NCBI GenBank assembly: GCA_029265355.1
Contig: JAJUJL010000011.1
Coordinates: 1 to 64,000, forward strand
Direction of reading: 5' to 3'
From: Chloroflexota bacterium
GTDB lineage: Bacteria > Chloroflexota > Anaerolineae > Anaerolineales > UBA4823
Length of the DNA: 64,000 nt
The translations under genes and the position numbers were made by a program. Positions 197-32,452 of the stretch are shown here, in pieces. Position 1 is the first letter of the stretch. The number at the start of each line of letters is the position of its first letter. The notes beneath the pieces are model-generated. The model had not been told where the DNA came from and did not search any database. It saw nothing but the letters and a program-made list of their open reading frames with translations.

Positions 197-1279
197 ATGC
201 CCGAGACAGATGCAAATCCCGCAATGCCTCCCAAACCACCCGATAGCCCGGCTTCCGAGAGCGAACCGGTGTGGACCTATCGCGGTTACCGGCTGCGTGC
301 CAGTGAATTCACCACCGCCATGGTGCATTTCTTCCGCGCCGAAGTGCAGCGTGCCAATGTCTGGCGACAGCGATTGGACACCACCACTAACTGGGCAGTC
401 GTCACCACAGGCGCGGCGATCACGATCGCTTTTAATCAGTCGGCGCACCATTCCGTCATTCTGCTGAATACCCTGCTGATCACCATGTTCCTGGGCATCG
501 AAGCCCGCCGTTACCGCTATTATGAATTGTGGAGCTACCGCATCCGCCTGATGGAAACCGATTTCTTTGCTTCCATGCTGGTGCCGCCTTTCCATCCGGC
601 TGCTGATTGGGCCGAGAGCCTGGCGGAGAATCTGCTGCACCCCAGCTTCCCCATCTCTATCTGGGAGGCCTTCGGACGCCGACTGCGGCGAAATTATTAT
701 TTGATTTACATCATCTTAGCTGCCGCCTGGCTGGTGCGCATCGGGCTGCTGCCAGACCAGGCTGTCAGTTGGGGCGACTTTTTTCAGCGCGCTGCCATCG
801 GCAGCTTGAGCGGCGAAGTGCTCATTATCAGCGGCATTGCGTTTTACGCATTTTTATTCCTGACTGCCATCTTCACCGTCGGATTACACCAGGCCAGCGG
901 AGAAGTGCTGCCCCGCTTTGGCGAATTGGATCATCACCCGGCAATCACACACGTGAACGGCGAAGAGGGACAGAGTCCTCGTCCCTGGTTTCGGCTGGGT
1001 AGGCGCCGCCAGCAACTCCTTGCCCTGATCATCACAGATCGCGCCCAGGAAGTGAGCCATTCGATCTTAAAAGAATTGAACCGCGGCGTCACCGCCATGC
1101 AGGGCACCGGCATGTATACCGGCAAAACGCACAGCGTGCTGATGATTGCCCTGACGGTTACCGAGGTTCCACACCTGAAAGCTGTGGTGCGCCAGACCGA
1201 CGCCCAGGCATTTGTGATCGTCTCTCCCGCCAGGGAGATCCTGGGGCGTGGCTTCATGCCGCTCCAGGAACAGCGGTAA
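197..1279 (+). CDS. DUF2270-DUF2179 fusion membrane protein
   Basis: Membrane protein of 360 residues whose function is not known. Residues ~35-235 match the DUF2270 pattern: a cytoplasmic N-terminus, a paired hydrophobic segment around residues 70-100 and two more helices at ~170-230. The motif EARRYRYYELW follows the first hairpin. The C-terminal ~85 residues match DUF2179, the soluble domain found at the end of YitT-type proteins (LIITDRAQEVSHSILKELNRG, with GTGMYTGK and AFVIVSPAREILGRGF). DUF2179 is thought to be a ligand-binding or oligomerising module, so this could be a membrane protein with a cytosolic sensory tail. The start is the ATG at 197, with purine-rich sequence upstream. A hairpin terminator follows, so it is probably transcribed alone. 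Confidence 0.75.
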   Translation: MPETDANPAMPPKPPDSPASESEPVWTYRGYRLRASEFTTAMVHFFRAEVQRANVWRQRLDTTTNWAVVTTGAAITIAFNQSAHHSVILLNTLLITMFLGIEARRYRYYELWSYRIRLMETDFFASMLVPPFHPAADWAESLAENLLHPSFPISIWEAFGRRLRRNYYLIYIILAAAWLVRIGLLPDQAVSWGDFFQRAAIGSLSGEVLIISGIAFYAFLFLTAIFTVGLHQASGEVLPRFGELDHHPAITHVNGEEGQSPRPWFRLGRRRQQLLALIITDRAQEVSHSILKELNRGVTAMQGTGMYTGKTHSVLMIALTVTEVPHLKAVVRQTDAQAFVIVSPAREILGRGFMPLQEQR

Positions 1280-1281
1280 GG

Positions 1282-1307
1282 CTGTTGTTTAAAGGCAACA
1301 GATTTTT
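1282..1307 (+). terminator. Rho-independent terminator after the DUF2270 gene
   Basis: CTGTTG (1282-1287) pairs with CAACAG (1296-1301) around an 8-nt loop and is followed by ATTTTT (1302-1307). It lies directly downstream of the stop codon at 1279. Confidence 0.55.
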
Positions 1308-1496
1308 CATGTTAAGGTCGGAAATTTCGAGTAAACTATTGTGTGATACCATTCACATAGTGAATGAATAAACTGCCTCGTGCGATTGTGTTGGTTTGAA
1401 TATTGTCCGGCACCTACATCCTCACCACTGTCCAGCCTTGAAACGCAGCGATCGCCATTTACCTGCAACTTGCCGCACTGGCTCAGGGGGGAGCAT

Positions 1497-3677
1497 TTGA
1501 GAAAAGATCTCTTACCTGGATGGTCACTAAAACGCCTGAAATGGTCTACACTCATTCTTTCTATTGCCGCGTTTACGCTCGGCATTGTCTTATTGGTGAA
1601 CTTTCGGGAACACCCTCTGGCCTATCCCTTGTTCTGGCTGGCCGGTGTCATGTCGGCCAGCCTGATCATTGAATTCACCTACCGCCAGGCAATCCGCCTG
1701 CAGGGCGAGCTTACCGAACGATTGGAAGATAGCCGCCAGCAAGAAACCCGGCAAGCAGCCTTATTGCAGATCAGCTCCAGGCTTTCTGCAGCCCGCAATG
1801 GCAGCGAAATTACCCAGACGATCATTGATACCGTCCAAAATTCCCTCGGCTATGCCTATGCTCAACTGCGCTGGGTGCATGATGAAGCCGCCATCCTCCA
1901 GGTAGACAGCTCCATCCAGCAGTCGATCACCCGCCCCATTTTGCTGCCAGATCCGTCGTGGAAGCACATCACGCTGCCATTGAGAGCTGGCGGCGAGTTA
2001 ATCGGCGACCTGACTGTGGCTGATCCAGGAGAGCGCCTGGAATCTCGCTCTGAACTCGAATTCCTGTCTGCGGTTGCTAACCAGGCTTCCATAGCGCTCT
2101 CGAATATCCGCTTGATCGCCATACAAAACCTGCAACGCCAGGAAGCCGAAAAGCGCGAACTTGAGCTGCGCACACGTGAGCGTCATCTGACCCTGCTCAA
2201 CGAGATCACCCGGGCGGGCATGCGACAGCATGATCTCCACACCATGCTGGATTCAATCGCCGAAGACCTGGGGCAAATGTTCTCTCCCGACAGTGTTTTG
2301 ATCACCCTGTGGGATGAGGCGCGCGGTTTGCCATTGCCGGTGGCAGCCTTCGGCCATCTCAAGCAAACAGTGCGCACCTTGCGCATCGAACCGGGCGATT
2401 TACCCCTCACTGCATCGGTATTGAAATCGGGGCGCGCCCTGGTGATCGACGACGTCAAGGCTTCCCCTTATATCAGCAGCCGCCTGTCCATCCCTTTGCA
2501 GGCGCGTTCGATGCTGGCCTTGCCGCTGTTGGTCAATGAGCAGAAGCTGGGAGCAGCCATCCTCACCTTCCGCCAGCACCACACGTTTACCGAGAGGGAA
2601 ATCTTGCTGGGAGAACAAGCTGCCAGCCAGATTGCGCTGGCAATCGCCCGGAATCGCGCCCTGACCGCCGCCCAGCACCGCGCCCAAGAATTGGCTGCGC
2701 TGCAAAAAGCCACCTCTGCCCTGCTCAGCACGCTGGATGTCGACAGCCTGCTCAGCCAGATCCTGGATGCCGCCATCAGCGCCATCTCCGCTGCCGAGAA
2801 AGGCAGCCTGCACCTGGTGGCGCGAGATACCGGGCAACTGCAGATCCGCGCGGTGTATGGCTACCAGGATCCACGCATTCGCACTTTCAATCCCACCAAC
2901 AGCGCCAGCTTCCCGGCGCGCGCCGTGCGCGACCGCCAACCGCTGCTGGTAGGCGATGCACAAACCGACCCTGGGCACCACGACACCGATATCCCCGAGC
3001 TGCGCGCCATTGCCTCCCTGATCGTCGCGCCGCTTCTCTTAGGAGACCAGGCTCTTGGCGCCATATCGTTGGAATCCTATCACCGCTACGCCTTCACAGA
3101 GAAAGATCTGAATCTGCTAGTGAGCTTCGCTGCCACAGCGACGACTGCTATTCGCAACGCCCAATTGCACGCCGAAGTTCAAATGCAAGCCACGGTGGAC
3201 TCGCTCACCGGCACGCTGAATCGACGCAGCTTCTTTGAGCAGGGATTTCGAGAAGTCGAACGCGCCCGCCGCTTTCACCGCCCTCTATCGCTGTTGATGA
3301 TCGACGCAGATAACTTCAAACAGATCAACGACACGCTGGGACATACCATCGGCGACCGGGTGCTTGCCCGGCTGGCTGCCCAGTTATCGCATGAGCTCAG
3401 GCAGGTGGATACACTGGGACGCTACGGGGGAGATGAGTTCCTGGCGCTTCTCCCAGAGACCGACCTGTCTCTCTCCACTCAAGTAGCGGAACGACTGCGC
3501 GCCTGCGTCGAAACCTCCTTCGCCAATCTGTCAGACGATCAGGCTCGGCTGACCATCAGCATCGGCGTCGCATCGTTGAGCTATGCGGATGACACCCTTG
3601 AAACCCTGGTCGAACGCGCCGACCAGGCATTGTATTCTGCCAAGCAAGCTGGTAGAAATCGCGTCGCGACCAGCTAA
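1497..3677 (+). CDS. Membrane-anchored triple-GAF diguanylate cyclase
   Basis: Makes cyclic di-GMP from two GTP at the inner face of the membrane. Two N-terminal hydrophobic helices (~17-36 and ~44-62) are followed by a short coiled coil, three GAF domains (~90-225, ~247-400, ~410-560) and a C-terminal GGDEF domain (~565-722). The active-site loop is an intact GGDEF at ~644-648. An RxxD product-inhibition I-site (RQVD) lies five residues before it, so the enzyme is probably active and feedback-inhibited. I prefer the TTG at 1497 because a strong GGGGGAG ribosome-binding site lies 2-9 bases upstream. An upstream GTG at 1380 would add 39 residues of low-complexity, non-conserved sequence. It converges on the minus-strand regulator with 26 bases between them. 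The GAF ligands cannot be read from sequence. Confidence 0.9.
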   Translation: MRKDLLPGWSLKRLKWSTLILSIAAFTLGIVLLVNFREHPLAYPLFWLAGVMSASLIIEFTYRQAIRLQGELTERLEDSRQQETRQAALLQISSRLSAARNGSEITQTIIDTVQNSLGYAYAQLRWVHDEAAILQVDSSIQQSITRPILLPDPSWKHITLPLRAGGELIGDLTVADPGERLESRSELEFLSAVANQASIALSNIRLIAIQNLQRQEAEKRELELRTRERHLTLLNEITRAGMRQHDLHTMLDSIAEDLGQMFSPDSVLITLWDEARGLPLPVAAFGHLKQTVRTLRIEPGDLPLTASVLKSGRALVIDDVKASPYISSRLSIPLQARSMLALPLLVNEQKLGAAILTFRQHHTFTEREILLGEQAASQIALAIARNRALTAAQHRAQELAALQKATSALLSTLDVDSLLSQILDAAISAISAAEKGSLHLVARDTGQLQIRAVYGYQDPRIRTFNPTNSASFPARAVRDRQPLLVGDAQTDPGHHDTDIPELRAIASLIVAPLLLGDQALGAISLESYHRYAFTEKDLNLLVSFAATATTAIRNAQLHAEVQMQATVDSLTGTLNRRSFFEQGFREVERARRFHRPLSLLMIDADNFKQINDTLGHTIGDRVLARLAAQLSHELRQVDTLGRYGGDEFLALLPETDLSLSTQVAERLRACVETSFANLSDDQARLTISIGVASLSYADDTLETLVERADQALYSAKQAGRNRVATS

Positions 3678-26356: not shown

Positions 26357-27313
26357 TTATTTCAAAAACGGGTGCTGCATGCCGTCCTTGGGAGAGATTT
26401 CCGCCCGGCGCAGGCGGTACGCCAGCTCGATCGAAGGCCGCGCTTCCGGCAAGCCGAAGCCGCGCCCGACCAACGTCTCTGCATACACGCGGGTGTGCAA
26501 GTCAGTAAACCCGCCGGTGAACTCGATCTCCTCGCCGTCCACGGTGATTGAGCGGTAGGTGGTGCGCACGCCAGGCTGCACCGGGAAGGGCAGGTCGGCG
26601 GGATCGGTGGATAAGAACCAGCGCACGCGAGCGCGCGGCATCTCCAGGAAGCCCGCCATGCGCTGCGGGTCAGAGTGGTAGACGCGCGCTTCCCCAACTT
26701 CGCCGAACAGCCATATCAACAAGTCGAAGAAGTGGATGCCGATATTGGTCGCCACCCCGCCGGATTTTTCGGGGTTGCCCTTCCAGGAGACGTGGTACCA
26801 GGCGCCGCGCGCGGTGACGTAGGTCAGCACCACCTCGTGCTGTTGTGTGGATGACTCCTGTAGCAGCTTTTCGCGCAGCGCCGCCAGGCGGGGGTGCAGG
26901 CGCAATTGCAGCACGGTGTAGATGCGCCGGCCAAACTCCTGTTCAAGCTCGGCGAGCTGATCCAGGTTCCACGGATTGATCACCAGTGGCTTCTCACACA
27001 GCGCATCCGCGCCGACGCGCAGCGCCAGGCGGCAGTGGGCGTCGTGCAGGTAATTGGGCGAGCAGATCGAGATCATGTGCACGCGTCCCTCTTCCGGGCC
27101 GCGGCGCAGCTTCTCCAGGTACCGGTCGAAGCGCTCGTACTCGGTGAAGAAGCGGATATCGAAGCCGTAGCGGTCCAGCAAGCCGACCGAGTCCTTGGGG
27201 TCCAGGGCGGCGATCAGTCGGTTGCCGGTGGCGTGAATGGCGTCCAGGTGGCGGGGGGCGATATAGCCGCCCACGCCGGTGATGGCGAAATTACGATGGG
27301 AGGTTTGATTCAC
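26357..27313 (-). CDS. wlbA: UDP-2-acetamido-2-deoxyglucuronate 3-dehydrogenase (WlbA/WbpB)
   Basis: A 318-residue Gfo/Idh/MocA oxidoreductase. It oxidises C3 of UDP-GlcNAcA with NAD, the first committed step towards the 3-amino sugar. The N-terminus FAITGVGGYIAPRHLDAIH, FFTEYERFDR, ICSPNYLHDAHC, CEKPLVINPWN (with the catalytic Lys) and LQLRLHPRL are close to what I know of WlbA. GVATNIGIHFFDLLIWLFG follows in the C-terminal domain. It is first in the minus-strand operon wlbA-wbpD-wbpE. The UDP-GlcNAc 6-dehydrogenase needed upstream in the pathway is not in this window. Confidence 0.9.
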   Translation of the reverse strand: MNQTSHRNFAITGVGGYIAPRHLDAIHATGNRLIAALDPKDSVGLLDRYGFDIRFFTEYERFDRYLEKLRRGPEEGRVHMISICSPNYLHDAHCRLALRVGADALCEKPLVINPWNLDQLAELEQEFGRRIYTVLQLRLHPRLAALREKLLQESSTQQHEVVLTYVTARGAWYHVSWKGNPEKSGGVATNIGIHFFDLLIWLFGEVGEARVYHSDPQRMAGFLEMPRARVRWFLSTDPADLPFPVQPGVRTTYRSITVDGEEIEFTGGFTDLHTRVYAETLVGRGFGLPEARPSIELAYRLRRAEISPKDGMQHPFLK

Positions 27314-27546: not shown

Positions 27547-27659
27547 TAGGTGTTTCGCCGGAAATGTTTTTACAAAGATGTGAACGATCACCAGCGAAAC
27601 CCTGGAGTAAACCGCCGTCGCGATGGCCGATTTACTCTAAACACTTTCGGCGGTTTACT
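27547..27659 (+). repeat. Left 113-bp inverted repeat
   Basis: Begins TAGGTGTTTCGCCGG and ends CTTTCGGCGGTTTACT. It contains two nested hairpins: GTTTCGCCGG with the imperfect CCAGCGAAAC, and GAGTAAACCGCCG with CGGCGGTTTACTC. The nine mismatches to the right copy lie mostly in the loops. The RHS reading frame opens inside this repeat. Confidence 0.8.
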
Positions 27660-30600
27660 CAGTATGACGGCCCAGCGACCAACGACGGCGCACACTCGGC
27701 GCTGGTGCACGACTACCTGGAAGATCTATATGGGGATGCCTTTGATGAGTTCCGCGGCCACGCTGCCGTGCGCGAGCAGTCGTCGGATGGCTACGTTACC
27801 ACCAGCTTCTTCCATCAAGATGACGACCTGACAGGTCGCAGCAGCGTGAGCCTGGTGGGAACGCAGAGCTACTACCAGCCGTTCTCAGAAACGAGCTGGA
27901 GCAGTTACAGCAGCGCCTGGACCTACTGGACGACTCAACCGACTTTCGAGCGCCAGGAAGGCGACATCTCCGCTAAGGTAACCTACTCCGGCGGGGGCTG
28001 GCAGGGCATGCTGCACCGCAACAGCTACAGCCTGACGAGCGGCAAAAACGCTGTTGTGCAGTTCAGGGTAGCCGAAGATGCCGGTGGAAATCAGGAAGCG
28101 GTATTTGCACTGGAAAGTGGGACGATCGGCAGTAACTATCAGAGCTGGCGCGTCTACCTCAAGCAAGACGGCAGCCTGTGGAGCAGCTACTGCACCACTT
28201 CAGGCGGCTCAACCACTTGCTCGTTTCAAAACCAACTCTATTCTGCTAACGAATTTAAATTGAATACCTGGTACGTGCTGGCACTCATCGCCGACAATAC
28301 CAACGGCTTCTACCTGCGGGTTTGGCCGCGCGAAGATCCTGGCAGCGTCAAAAGTGACCGCAGGAGCTTCAGCATCGCCAGCTGGCGCTTCGCGGGGTAC
28401 GTGAATTACGGCGCCATGTGGCTGGACGAATATAGCGAAGGTGTGCTGTATTCGCTCGGCAGCAGCGAGGCCGATACCGATGAAGGCATCTTCGCGACAT
28501 CGGGCATGTTCGATGACTATCCTGACCTGAGCATCGACTGGACGCGCACCCTGACCGAGACGCAGCTCAGCTTTGAGGGCACCAGCCGCTGGCAGGGCAC
28601 GCGCCGCTACCTGCAGTATCGCCCGGAGGAGCAGAAGATCGCGGGCGTACCACGCCAGTACGGCAACGTCACACGGGTGGTGGAATCCGAATGGGATCCA
28701 TCCGCCGGAAACTGGCGCGATGTGCGCCTCACCCAGATGGAACACTTTCCCAACATCAGCGGTGTTAACCTGGTGGGGCTGCCGGGCTACCAGAACGTGT
28801 ACCAGTGCCCGGCGGGCAGCCACGACCGTTCCTGCTCTGACCAATACACGGACCCCCCGCCAGAAGCGCAGCTGCGCAGCTCGCACTGGTTTATGTATGA
28901 TTACAACCCGCATTATTATGATCCGCCATCTGGCAACGTGCCTGGTGGCGTGCTGACTGGCGAGCGCACCCTTTTACGCTTTGCCGGGGCAAACTACACC
29001 GACCCGCGCTATGGGGACGTTTCATACATCTACGATGCCTGGGGCAACCAGAAGACCGTGAACGCCTACCGCAGCGAAGCGACGTACGGCGCCATGTTCC
29101 AGGGGACGGTCAGCGTGACGACCGCATGCTATGGCTACTACAATGGCACGTCTTGCGTCGACGATGATCCTTACCACACCTTCCCAGGCTGGACGAAGAA
29201 TGCCCTGACCCCGGATCAGTACACTCGCTTCCAGTATAGCTACGACTACGCCCAGCCGGTGTGGATCCAGGATGCCAACGAGCAAATCACACAGGCGGAG
29301 TACGACGATTTTGGACGGATTAGCCTGATCCGCCGCCCGGGCGACGAGAGCGGCGCGCCGACAATGACCTTTGCCTACGTGAACGACACCGGCAGCGGCG
29401 TGCCTTTCTACACCGATGCCACGCAGAAGATCGACAGCAGCACCACCTACCGTATCCGCAAGTACTACAACGGGCTGGGCTGGCTGCTGCAAACGCAGGT
29501 GATCGGGGCCAATATCGATAGTGCAACGAAAGATATCCTGGTGGACAACTACTACGACAACGCCGGTAAGGTGTGGAAGCAATCTGTACCGTACGCCGTG
29601 GACACAGGCAGCGAGCCTTCCTGGCACGGTCGGGATGGTAACCAGCTCGCAAGTGTGATCTCTTACGACTCACTGGGGCGGGTAGTGCAAGTGCTGGCGC
29701 CGGATACCACCCAGCAAAATACGGCTTACGGCTTCGACGTGAGCACGAACCGCATGCTGGTGAAAAGCTACGATCCGCGCTACCCGGCAAACGAATCCTA
29801 CACCACCAAAACCTACAGCGACTCCTGGGGCAGGACGGTGCAGGTGCAGCCGCCTACCGGACCAGGGGTGAGCTACGTTTACGATATCCTGGACCGGCTG
29901 ACGGACGTGTATTACGGCAGCCCTCACACCATCCTGACCTACGACCTCGCCGGGCGCAAAACACAGATGGTCGACCCCGACATGGGAACCTGGCAGTATG
30001 GCTATGATGCGACAGGCAACCTGACCAGCCAGACGGATGCCCGCGGCTGCGTGACTAGCCTGAGCTACGATCTGCTGAACCGCCCGACGGGAAAGAGCTT
30101 CAGCGGGAGCTGCGGCGCGGGTGGAACGAGCGTGACCTACGGGTATGACTACGGGCAGTATGGCCGCGGCTACCGCACCAGCATGATCGATGGCTCGGGC
30201 AGCACCTCCTGGAGCTACGACCAGCGCGGGCGGCTACGGCTGGAAGATAAGACCATCACCGGCTCGGGCAGGTTCGTCACCGAGTGGAGCTACAACTCAG
30301 CCGATCTGGTAGAATGGATGAAGTATCCGGGCGATAACCTCGGAAACGCTGGAGAGAAAGTTACTTACAACTACCACCCGCAGATGCTGATCAAGAACTT
30401 CCACCTCGATAGCGATACCGATCCCGACTATTTTTACCTGCAGAATGCCAGCTACGACGCCGCCGGTCGACCCGACCAATTGAAATTGGGAGCGGACACC
30501 TTGCTGGACACATCGCCGGAGCTGGTGCAGGATCACGATTACTTTGCCTGGGACAGGCTCTACGGGTTGGGGCGGCTGAAGGCGCTGAAGACTCAGACCG

Positions 30601-31400
30601 GCGGCGGTACGCCTCTCGTGCTGCAGGACCTGCGATATTACAGCGGGATAGACACTCCCAAATACGACGCTGCCGGCAACCTTTTGAACATCTACGATTA
30701 CAAAGCCGGGAACCCACAGACACAGACCTTCCAGTATGACAGCCTGCACCGGCTGACCAGCGCCGCAGCCAGCGGGGGAACGAACGGCAACTACTCTGAG
30801 ACCTACACCTACAACAGCAACACAGGCAACCTGGCGAGCAAGATCGGTAATACCTATACCTACGACCCAAGTGTGAGCTGTCCGGCTGGAAATCGCAGCC
30901 TACCACACGCTGTAGCTGCGATGGGCAATACGGAGGGCACCACCAGCTACACCTATGATTGCAATGGAAACATGACCCGCCGCGACCCGGACGGCGCACC
31001 TGTGTACAATTTTGCCTATGATACCGAGAACCGCCTGGTGCGCGCCGACGGCGCCAACCAGGACGGCGTCGCACAGGAGAGCGGCGGGATGGTAGTGATC
31101 GAAGCGGAGAAATATTGGGAGACGATCGTCCGCAGCAGCCACGACTGGGTGCTCTCTACGGCCAAGGCGGGCTACAGCGGCACAGGCGCCATGCTCGCCA
31201 GTCCGAACAACGGTGGATTTTACGACACGGGCTACACCGCCACCAGCCCGGAGATGCGCTCCCTGTTGGAATTTCACCAGACGGGTACGTACTACGTCTG
31301 GATCTGGCTGTGCGCAGGCAGCGCCTCTGACGATTCGGCGCACATCGGGTTGGAAGCTCGCATCGCAGGGCTGAGCACCGGCAGGTTATCAGGAAAATGA
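27564..31400 (+). CDS. RHS/YD-repeat protein, truncated at both ends
   Basis: A 1278-residue frame. The first ~32 residues are translated from the inverted repeat and are basic, with no signal peptide. Residues ~35-330 include a beta-rich, lectin-like region (FETSW-type aromatic repeats, two Cys near CTTSGGSTTC). From ~460 to ~1150 there are many YD/RHS repeats (YDxxGRxxxxxxP, such as YDLAGRKTQMVDPD, YDATGNLTSQTDARG and YDTENRLVRADG). The last ~110 residues (VVIEAEKYWE, FHQTGTYYVWIWLCAG) resemble a carbohydrate-binding module that breaks off before completion. Full-length RHS proteins are secreted and carry a variable C-terminal domain after a core such as PxxPxDPLG, which is absent here. It is probably a displaced fragment, transcribed or not. 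Confidence 0.65.
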   Translation: MFLQRCERSPAKPWSKPPSRWPIYSKHFRRFTQYDGPATNDGAHSALVHDYLEDLYGDAFDEFRGHAAVREQSSDGYVTTSFFHQDDDLTGRSSVSLVGTQSYYQPFSETSWSSYSSAWTYWTTQPTFERQEGDISAKVTYSGGGWQGMLHRNSYSLTSGKNAVVQFRVAEDAGGNQEAVFALESGTIGSNYQSWRVYLKQDGSLWSSYCTTSGGSTTCSFQNQLYSANEFKLNTWYVLALIADNTNGFYLRVWPREDPGSVKSDRRSFSIASWRFAGYVNYGAMWLDEYSEGVLYSLGSSEADTDEGIFATSGMFDDYPDLSIDWTRTLTETQLSFEGTSRWQGTRRYLQYRPEEQKIAGVPRQYGNVTRVVESEWDPSAGNWRDVRLTQMEHFPNISGVNLVGLPGYQNVYQCPAGSHDRSCSDQYTDPPPEAQLRSSHWFMYDYNPHYYDPPSGNVPGGVLTGERTLLRFAGANYTDPRYGDVSYIYDAWGNQKTVNAYRSEATYGAMFQGTVSVTTACYGYYNGTSCVDDDPYHTFPGWTKNALTPDQYTRFQYSYDYAQPVWIQDANEQITQAEYDDFGRISLIRRPGDESGAPTMTFAYVNDTGSGVPFYTDATQKIDSSTTYRIRKYYNGLGWLLQTQVIGANIDSATKDILVDNYYDNAGKVWKQSVPYAVDTGSEPSWHGRDGNQLASVISYDSLGRVVQVLAPDTTQQNTAYGFDVSTNRMLVKSYDPRYPANESYTTKTYSDSWGRTVQVQPPTGPGVSYVYDILDRLTDVYYGSPHTILTYDLAGRKTQMVDPDMGTWQYGYDATGNLTSQTDARGCVTSLSYDLLNRPTGKSFSGSCGAGGTSVTYGYDYGQYGRGYRTSMIDGSGSTSWSYDQRGRLRLEDKTITGSGRFVTEWSYNSADLVEWMKYPGDNLGNAGEKVTYNYHPQMLIKNFHLDSDTDPDYFYLQNASYDAAGRPDQLKLGADTLLDTSPELVQDHDYFAWDRLYGLGRLKALKTQTGGGTPLVLQDLRYYSGIDTPKYDAAGNLLNIYDYKAGNPQTQTFQYDSLHRLTSAAASGGTNGNYSETYTYNSNTGNLASKIGNTYTYDPSVSCPAGNRSLPHAVAAMGNTEGTTSYTYDCNGNMTRRDPDGAPVYNFAYDTENRLVRADGANQDGVAQESGGMVVIEAEKYWETIVRSSHDWVLSTAKAGYSGTGAMLASPNNGGFYDTGYTATSPEMRSLLEFHQTGTYYVWIWLCAGSASDDSAHIGLEARIAGLSTGRLSGK

Positions 31401-31459
31401 GAAGGTGTAACTGTATTTTACGATCCCGGTACTCGTTATAATACGACCATCGCACGCTA

Positions 31460-31572
31460 AGTAAACCGCCGAAAGTGTTTAGAGTAAATCCGCCATTGCG
31501 TCGGCGGTTTACTCCAGGGTTTCGCCGGTGCTCGTTCACATTTTTATAAAAATACTTCCGGCGAAACACCTA
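31460..31572 (-). repeat. Right 113-bp inverted repeat
   Basis: Reverse complement of the left repeat with nine substitutions. Here the first internal hairpin is perfect (GTTTCGCCGG with CCGGCGAAAC), and GTAAACCGCCG/CGGCGGTTTAC is kept. It ends 19 bases before the start codon of the alpha/beta hydrolase, so it probably sits where that gene's promoter would be. Confidence 0.8.
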
Positions 31573-31591: not shown

Positions 31592-32452
31592 ATGCCAGTC
31601 GAACTGGAACACACGATGATCGCGGTCAATGGCGTCCGGCTGCACGTGGTCAGCGCCGGACCCACCGGAGGAAAACCGGTAATTTTGCTGCACGGCTTTC
31701 CGGAGTTCTGGCGCGGCTGGTCGAAGCAGATCTCCCCCCTGGCGGAAGCCGGCTACCGGGTGATCGTCCCCGACCAGCGCGGTTATAACCTGTCGGCTGC
31801 TCCGAAGGACATCCGTGCTTATTCGCTGGATAACCTGAGCCGTGATATCACCGGCCTGATGGATCATTTCGGATACCAGCAGGCAGCCGTGGTGGGGCAT
31901 GATTGGGGAGGAGCGGTTGCCTGGCATCTGGGCATCCATCATCCCGAGCGAGTCGAGCGCCTGGGCATCTTGAACCTGCCGCACCCGCTGGTGGTGAGCA
32001 AATTTCTCCGAACCAGCCTCCAGCAGATGTTAAGGTTTTGGTATTTTGCTTATTTTCAAATCCCCCGCCTGCCGGATTGGCTGACGAGCATCAATAATTA
32101 CGCCGGCGCAGCCAGTATTCTTACCGCAAGCGGCAAAGATTCAACGTTTTCTGCGGATGATATCGCTGAGTATAAGCAGGCGTGGGCAAACTCCGGCGGC
32201 CTCACCGGCATGCTCAACTGGTATCGTGCCGCGGTGCGCTATCCACCCCGCATGAAACCCGGGGCGCTGCTCACGATGCCGGTCTTGATCGTATGGGGCA
32301 GGCGCGATGTCGCGCTGCAGTATGAGATGGCCAGCGCCAGCCTCAAATACTGCCCCAATGGGCGGCTGATCACCCTGAATGATGCCACGCATTGGGTACA
32401 GCACGACGAACCCCAGGCGGTAGCCCGGGCTCTTTTAGAATTCCTGGCTTAG
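31592..32452 (+). CDS. Alpha/beta hydrolase, epoxide hydrolase/dehalogenase type
   Basis: A 286-residue soluble hydrolase. The oxyanion-hole motif HGFPEFWRGW, the nucleophile elbow GHDWGGA (Asp nucleophile), the acid in WGRRDVAL and the catalytic His in ATHWVQHDEP form the triad of the epoxide hydrolase and haloalkane/fluoroacetate dehalogenase branch. A cap domain occupies ~135-210. The substrate cannot be told from sequence. The start at 31592 follows an AAGGGAAG site. The inverted repeat lies immediately upstream, so any older promoter has been replaced. Confidence 0.85.
   Translation: MPVELEHTMIAVNGVRLHVVSAGPTGGKPVILLHGFPEFWRGWSKQISPLAEAGYRVIVPDQRGYNLSAAPKDIRAYSLDNLSRDITGLMDHFGYQQAAVVGHDWGGAVAWHLGIHHPERVERLGILNLPHPLVVSKFLRTSLQQMLRFWYFAYFQIPRLPDWLTSINNYAGAASILTASGKDSTFSADDIAEYKQAWANSGGLTGMLNWYRAAVRYPPRMKPGALLTMPVLIVWGRRDVALQYEMASASLKYCPNGRLITLNDATHWVQHDEPQAVARALLEFLA

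What the first reader, a model, noticed from the sequence alone, without database searches (positions are those of the whole stretch)
27547..31572. RHS gene fragment enclosed by 113-bp inverted repeats
Left and right repeats are 104/113 identical with no gaps and form the exact boundaries of the cassette. The RHS frame begins inside the left repeat, lacks a signal peptide, and breaks off in a carbohydrate-binding-like domain just before the right repeat. No recombinase is inside. It could be a non-autonomous transposon that carries RHS modules, an invertible segment that swaps RHS parts, or a swap cassette for RHS diversification.
Basis: partly seen in the sequence, partly recalled or inferred. 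Interest (0 to 1): 0.7.

Follow-up and report, generated by a model that had tools for sequence, protein, structure and literature searches.

The report
Broken RHS gene between two MITEs
A fragment of a large RHS-repeat surface/toxin-type gene is trapped between two copies of a short, roughly 53-copy mobile element of a well-known kind (a MITE), so this looks like a dead gene piece cut or moved by ordinary small transposons rather than a switch or a new diversification cassette.

Summary
In detail: two ungapped inverted repeats (91% over 116 nt) enclose a 1,245-codon RHS fragment with no recombinase. The repeat is not specific to RHS. It is a 111-bp two-hairpin element with about 53 copies in this 5.05-Mb genome (47 full length, up to 100% alike). 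It is flanked by TA on both sides, usually inside C-TA...TA-G, which is the IS630/Tc1-mariner target pattern, so it is best read as an IS630-type MITE. Only the two copies here have RHS sequence within 1.5 kb. RHS homology starts at the first codon after the left MITE; more than 350 N-terminal residues present in relatives are missing, and none lie outside the MITE. At the right, homology stops about 100 bp before the other MITE, inside a carbohydrate-binding-like domain. There is no RHS sequence outside either repeat, so inversion would switch nothing. The genome holds other broken RHS genes without MITEs, including one whose N- and C-terminal parts remain and whose middle is missing. Most likely, MITEs cut an RHS gene and the MITE-RHS-MITE segment moved as a composite (or MITE recombination truncated a resident gene). 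Low interest: a new MITE family, a known kind of event.

The parts
27547..27548 (.). TA at the outer edge of the left MITE (target-type dinucleotide)
   Evidence: TA is at this place in most of the 47 full copies
27549..27659 (+). left MITE copy, 111 bp, two hairpins
   Evidence: 95% identical to the family consensus; hairpins with z-scores -4.8 and -5.2
27660..27661 (.). CA at the inner edge of the left MITE (TA in most copies)
27564..31400 (+). open frame of 1278 codons; its ATG and first 33 codons lie in the MITE and its edge and do not belong to RHS
   Evidence: homology begins only at 27663
27663..31355 (+). internal RHS fragment: starts at the YDGPATND motif, contains YD repeats, ends inside a carbohydrate-binding-like domain
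   Evidence: Pfam RHS_repeat E 1.7e-18; best matches 34-48% identical to RHS proteins of same-family and same-order genomes, several starting at residue 1
31356..31456 (+). about 100 bp with no RHS homology between the fragment and the right MITE
31458..31459 (.). TA at the inner edge of the right MITE
31460..31570 (-). right MITE copy, inverted, 111 bp
   Evidence: 97% identical to the family consensus, of a different sub-lineage from the left copy; hairpins with z-scores -6.3 and -6.9
31571..31572 (.). TA at the outer edge of the right MITE
26357..27313 (-). GFO/IDH/MocA oxidoreductase (left neighbour, unrelated to RHS)
31592..32452 (+). alpha/beta hydrolase (right neighbour, starts 19 bp after the right MITE)

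Best explanation
The repeats are two inverted copies of a multi-copy, TA-targeting IS630-type MITE (shown by copy number, ends, and TA/CTAG flanks; membership in IS630 is inferred). Between them lies a truncated, probably non-functional piece of an RHS-repeat gene. Most likely MITEs inserted in or next to an RHS gene, and the segment bounded by the two outer MITE ends was then excised and inserted as a composite-like unit at a TA in the gap between an oxidoreductase gene and a hydrolase gene, by a transposase supplied in trans. The steps before the present arrangement are inferred. Nothing suggests a programmed switch.
For: 49 left-end and 47 right-end pattern matches, 53 distinct copies placed, 47 of them full length, with controls at 0. 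Flanks: left TA in roughly 37-39 of 47 and right TA in 41-44 of 47, with C outside left (26/47) and G outside right (35/47). Imperfect inverted ends share CGCCGRAAGTGTTT. An IS630 (DDE_3) remnant in the same genome also lies in GCTA...TAGC. Transposition of ISY100, an IS630 family member, duplicates TA (PMC2170065). RHS homology starts at the first codon after the left MITE although relatives continue 367-500 residues upstream, which is unlikely unless the MITE made the junction. Neither outer flank carries RHS sequence, and both outer edges are TA.
Against: No donor locus or second copy of the RHS segment was found. No RHS N-terminus lies beside any MITE. The left MITE is flanked by TA/CA and other solo copies have similar mismatches, so a two-base duplication cannot prove a composite insertion. 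About 100 bp of non-RHS DNA lies inside the right MITE. Other close MITE pairs enclose ordinary genes rather than cut ones. No empty site could be seen, because no held relative shares the neighbouring genes. No intact IS630 transposase is in the assembly.
Confidence: 0.5

Rival explanations
1. Truncation in place: an RHS gene stood between the two neighbours, and homologous recombination between MITE copies (or MITE-adjacent deletion) removed its N-terminal part and its C-terminal end, leaving MITEs at the cuts.
For: The left MITE has unlike flanks (TA/CA), as a recombinant would. About 53 similar copies give ample substrate for recombination. Other RHS genes in this genome are also internally deleted.
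Against: It needs two separate deletions, each ending at a MITE and leaving no RHS residue outside. The broken RHS genes elsewhere have no MITE at their breaks. The left copy shows no clear chimera of two sub-lineages.
Confidence: 0.32
2. Coincidence: an old RHS remnant that later received two independent solo MITE insertions near its ends.
For: The two copies belong to different sub-lineages (9 differences, about the genome median of 10). Close MITE pairs occur elsewhere (6 seen, 2.5 expected, P about 0.03) and enclose ordinary genes.
Against: RHS homology begins within a codon of the left MITE's inner edge, which chance would rarely give.
Confidence: 0.15
3. An invertible or swap cassette that diversifies an RHS gene.
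For: The 113-bp inverted repeats could recombine.
Against: No recombinase, no RHS part outside the repeats, a single copy, and a repeat family not linked to RHS.
Confidence: 0.03

Closest known systems
IS630/Tc1-mariner-type MITEs of bacteria
   Same: Short, non-coding, multi-copy, hairpin-forming; TA on both sides, preferring CTAG; recent bursts of identical copies
   Different: The terminal repeats are imperfect, and no autonomous partner with the same ends was found in this genome or in 396 genomes of its class
MITE-bounded integron with blaPER-1 in Acinetobacter johnsonii (PMC3934969) and TIME-COMPs (PMC13367494)
   Same: Two copies of one miniature element bound a segment of other DNA; in A. 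johnsonii the integron is truncated by the MITE at both ends
   Different: Different element families; here the cargo is a broken RHS gene, and neither a donor nor an empty site is known
RHS/YD-repeat polymorphic toxin genes
   Same: YD repeats with 34-48% identity to RHS proteins of related genomes
   Different: No signal peptide or N-terminal part, no C-terminal core or toxin tip, no immunity gene: a fragment only

Membership tests
IS630/Tc1-mariner-type MITE | multi-copy, short, non-coding | tested here: met
   53 copies of about 111 bp, 47 full length
IS630/Tc1-mariner-type MITE | TA on both flanks (target duplication), CTAG preference | tested here: met
   TA at most copies on both sides, C outside left and G outside right
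IS630/Tc1-mariner-type MITE | terminal inverted repeats | tested here: inconclusive
   imperfect ends sharing CGCCGRAAGTGTTT with different outermost bases
IS630/Tc1-mariner-type MITE | ends shared with an autonomous IS630 element | tested here: inconclusive
   none found: the one DDE_3 remnant in the genome has other ends, sharing only AGT(A/T) and the GCTA...TAGC flank; no partner in 396 genomes of the class. The partner may be lost, unassembled or unsampled
MITE-bounded composite transposon | two copies bounding cargo, target duplication outside | tested here: inconclusive
   TA on both outer edges, but two bases are weak evidence and no empty site was found
MITE-bounded composite transposon | same cargo with its boundaries at a second site, or demonstrated movement | tested here: not met
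   cargo is single copy in the genome, so it is not filed as a member
complete RHS gene | signal peptide, N-terminal region, RHS core and C-terminal tip | tested here: not met
   only the middle is present
invertible DNA switch | recombinase nearby and an expressed partner outside the repeats | tested here: not met
   none within the segment; no RHS sequence outside it

The most novel reading that the evidence does not exclude
The middle of the RHS gene on contig C50, whose N- and C-terminal parts remain joined in frame there, was carried off by a MITE pair and now sits in this window, so MITE pairs move RHS core modules between loci in this lineage.
Probability: 0.1. Interest if true: 0.5.

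Novelty: new member of a known kind. Interest (0 to 1): 0.2.

Why it matters
It adds a lineage-specific, recently active MITE family of TA-targeting type, and one clear case where such elements mark the break of a large RHS gene. It warns that inverted repeats exactly at a gene fragment's edge need not be a switch. Beyond that the effect is modest.

Tried and rejected
Rfam on five copies: no RNA family covers the repeat. Exact 20-mer of the MITE end in 84,980 species: none (the tool says records of this genome or one very near it may be left out). MITE in 60 relatives and 396 class genomes: only short weak matches. Autonomous copy by unpaired ends: the unpaired ends checked proved to be diverged or truncated copies. 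Empty site through hydrolase orthologues in 60 genomes: no shared neighbours. MITE copy with RHS N-terminus at its flank: none. Chimera test on the left MITE: inconclusive.

Full report
Observation. The window holds one outstanding inverted repeat, 27547-27662 against 31457-31572, 116 nt at 91% without gaps; the next best pair in 64 kb is 40 nt at 75%. Between the arms a single frame is open for 1278 codons (27564-31400), starting inside the left repeat. It carries RHS/YD repeats (Pfam E 1.7e-18) and no recombinase.

The repeat. In the genome that holds the window (5.05 Mb, 64 contigs) the element occurs about 53 times: 49 matches to its left-end pattern and 47 to its right-end pattern, with none in the reversed control. 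Forty-seven copies are full length (mostly 110-111 bp). Three equal the consensus and many are 97-99% alike, so it moved recently; four copies on C28, C36, C49 and C58 are identical to each other in a separate sub-lineage. The flanks are TA on both sides in most copies (left -1 A 39/47, -2 T 37/47; right +1 T 41/47, +2 A 44/47), with C outside left (26/47) and G outside right (35/47). The two ends share an inverted core CGCCGRAAGTGTTT but differ in their outermost bases. Each half folds into a stable hairpin (z -4.8 to -6.9 for the whole element). TA duplication is the mark of IS630/Tc1-mariner elements: ISY100 inserts almost only at TA and duplicates it, and IS630 prefers TA in CTAG (PMC2170065 and a reference titled there). 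The element is therefore best read as an IS630-type MITE. Its autonomous partner is missing: the one DDE_3 remnant here has other ends, though the same GCTA...TAGC surroundings (read by eye from the sequence). No match to the whole element was found in 60 relatives or 396 genomes of the class, nor to an exact 20-mer of its end in 84,980 species.

The RHS fragment. Homology to RHS proteins of related genomes (best matches 34-48% identity) begins at residue 1, window 27663, the first codon after the left MITE, at the motif YDGPATND. In relatives the protein continues 367-500 or more residues upstream, ending in YRYDEPATND-like sequence. That upstream part is not found left of the MITE. So the left junction was almost certainly made through the MITE (inference). 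On the right, homology ends near 31355 inside a carbohydrate-binding-like domain, and about 100 bp without RHS homology precede the right MITE. The right repeat is thus close to the fragment's end but not its exact boundary. The fragment is single copy.

Link to RHS. RHS fragment, N-terminal and C-terminal queries against up to 1.5 kb either side of all 53 copies hit only this locus. Other close MITE pairs enclose ordinary genes. Six neighbour pairs lie within 4.5 kb where 2.5 are expected, P about 0.03. The same genome has other damaged RHS loci without MITEs at their breaks: a gene on C50 whose N-terminal (SpvB-like) and C-terminal parts are joined in frame without the middle, followed by a DUF4279 gene, and pieces on C12 and C3. 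The window fragment and the C50 gene cover complementary parts with no overlap, which would fit one ancestral gene; but relatives hold several RHS paralogues, so this stays a suggestion.

Mechanism. The two MITEs belong to different sub-lineages (9 differences, genome median 10), so they arrived as separate insertions. The simplest history is insertion of MITEs in or next to an RHS gene, then movement of the segment bounded by the outer ends to the TA between the oxidoreductase and the hydrolase. This needs one step to explain why both RHS ends are lost and why both outer edges are TA. Truncation in place by recombination between MITE copies is the main rival and explains the unlike TA/CA flanks of the left copy. 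No empty site could be inspected. An invertible switch has nothing to switch.

Compared with the known. MITEs bounding other DNA are described: a Tn402-like integron truncated by the same 439-bp MITE at both ends (PMC3934969, abstract) and TIME-COMPs (PMC13367494); a review notes that stretches flanked by MITEs can be mobilised (PMC10969869). This is the same kind of arrangement with a different element and a broken gene as cargo. Verdict: real, explained, low interest.

Noticed in passing
L162 (G000:C50, around 43.2-47.4 kb), open frame 373-3549: An RHS gene whose N- and C-terminal parts are joined in frame with the middle missing, followed by a DUF4279 gene; complementary in extent to the window fragment.
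   Followed up: partly
L097 13309-14109 and L102 1-1218, 4305-4670: Further RHS pieces on C12 (a signal-peptide-like start near a short RHS stretch) and on the small contig C3, which also carries an IS110-like transposase frame (named from its sequence, not searched).
   Followed up: partly
L148 (G000:C11:12682-13113): The only IS630 (DDE_3) match in the genome; it appears frame-broken, with ends in GCTA...TAGC.
   Followed up: partly
L155, L156, L157, L158: Four identical MITE copies of a 110-bp sub-lineage on four contigs, a sign of a recent burst.
   Followed up: no
L003 1694-1940: A glmS ribozyme match (40.5 bits) just downstream of one MITE copy.
   Followed up: no
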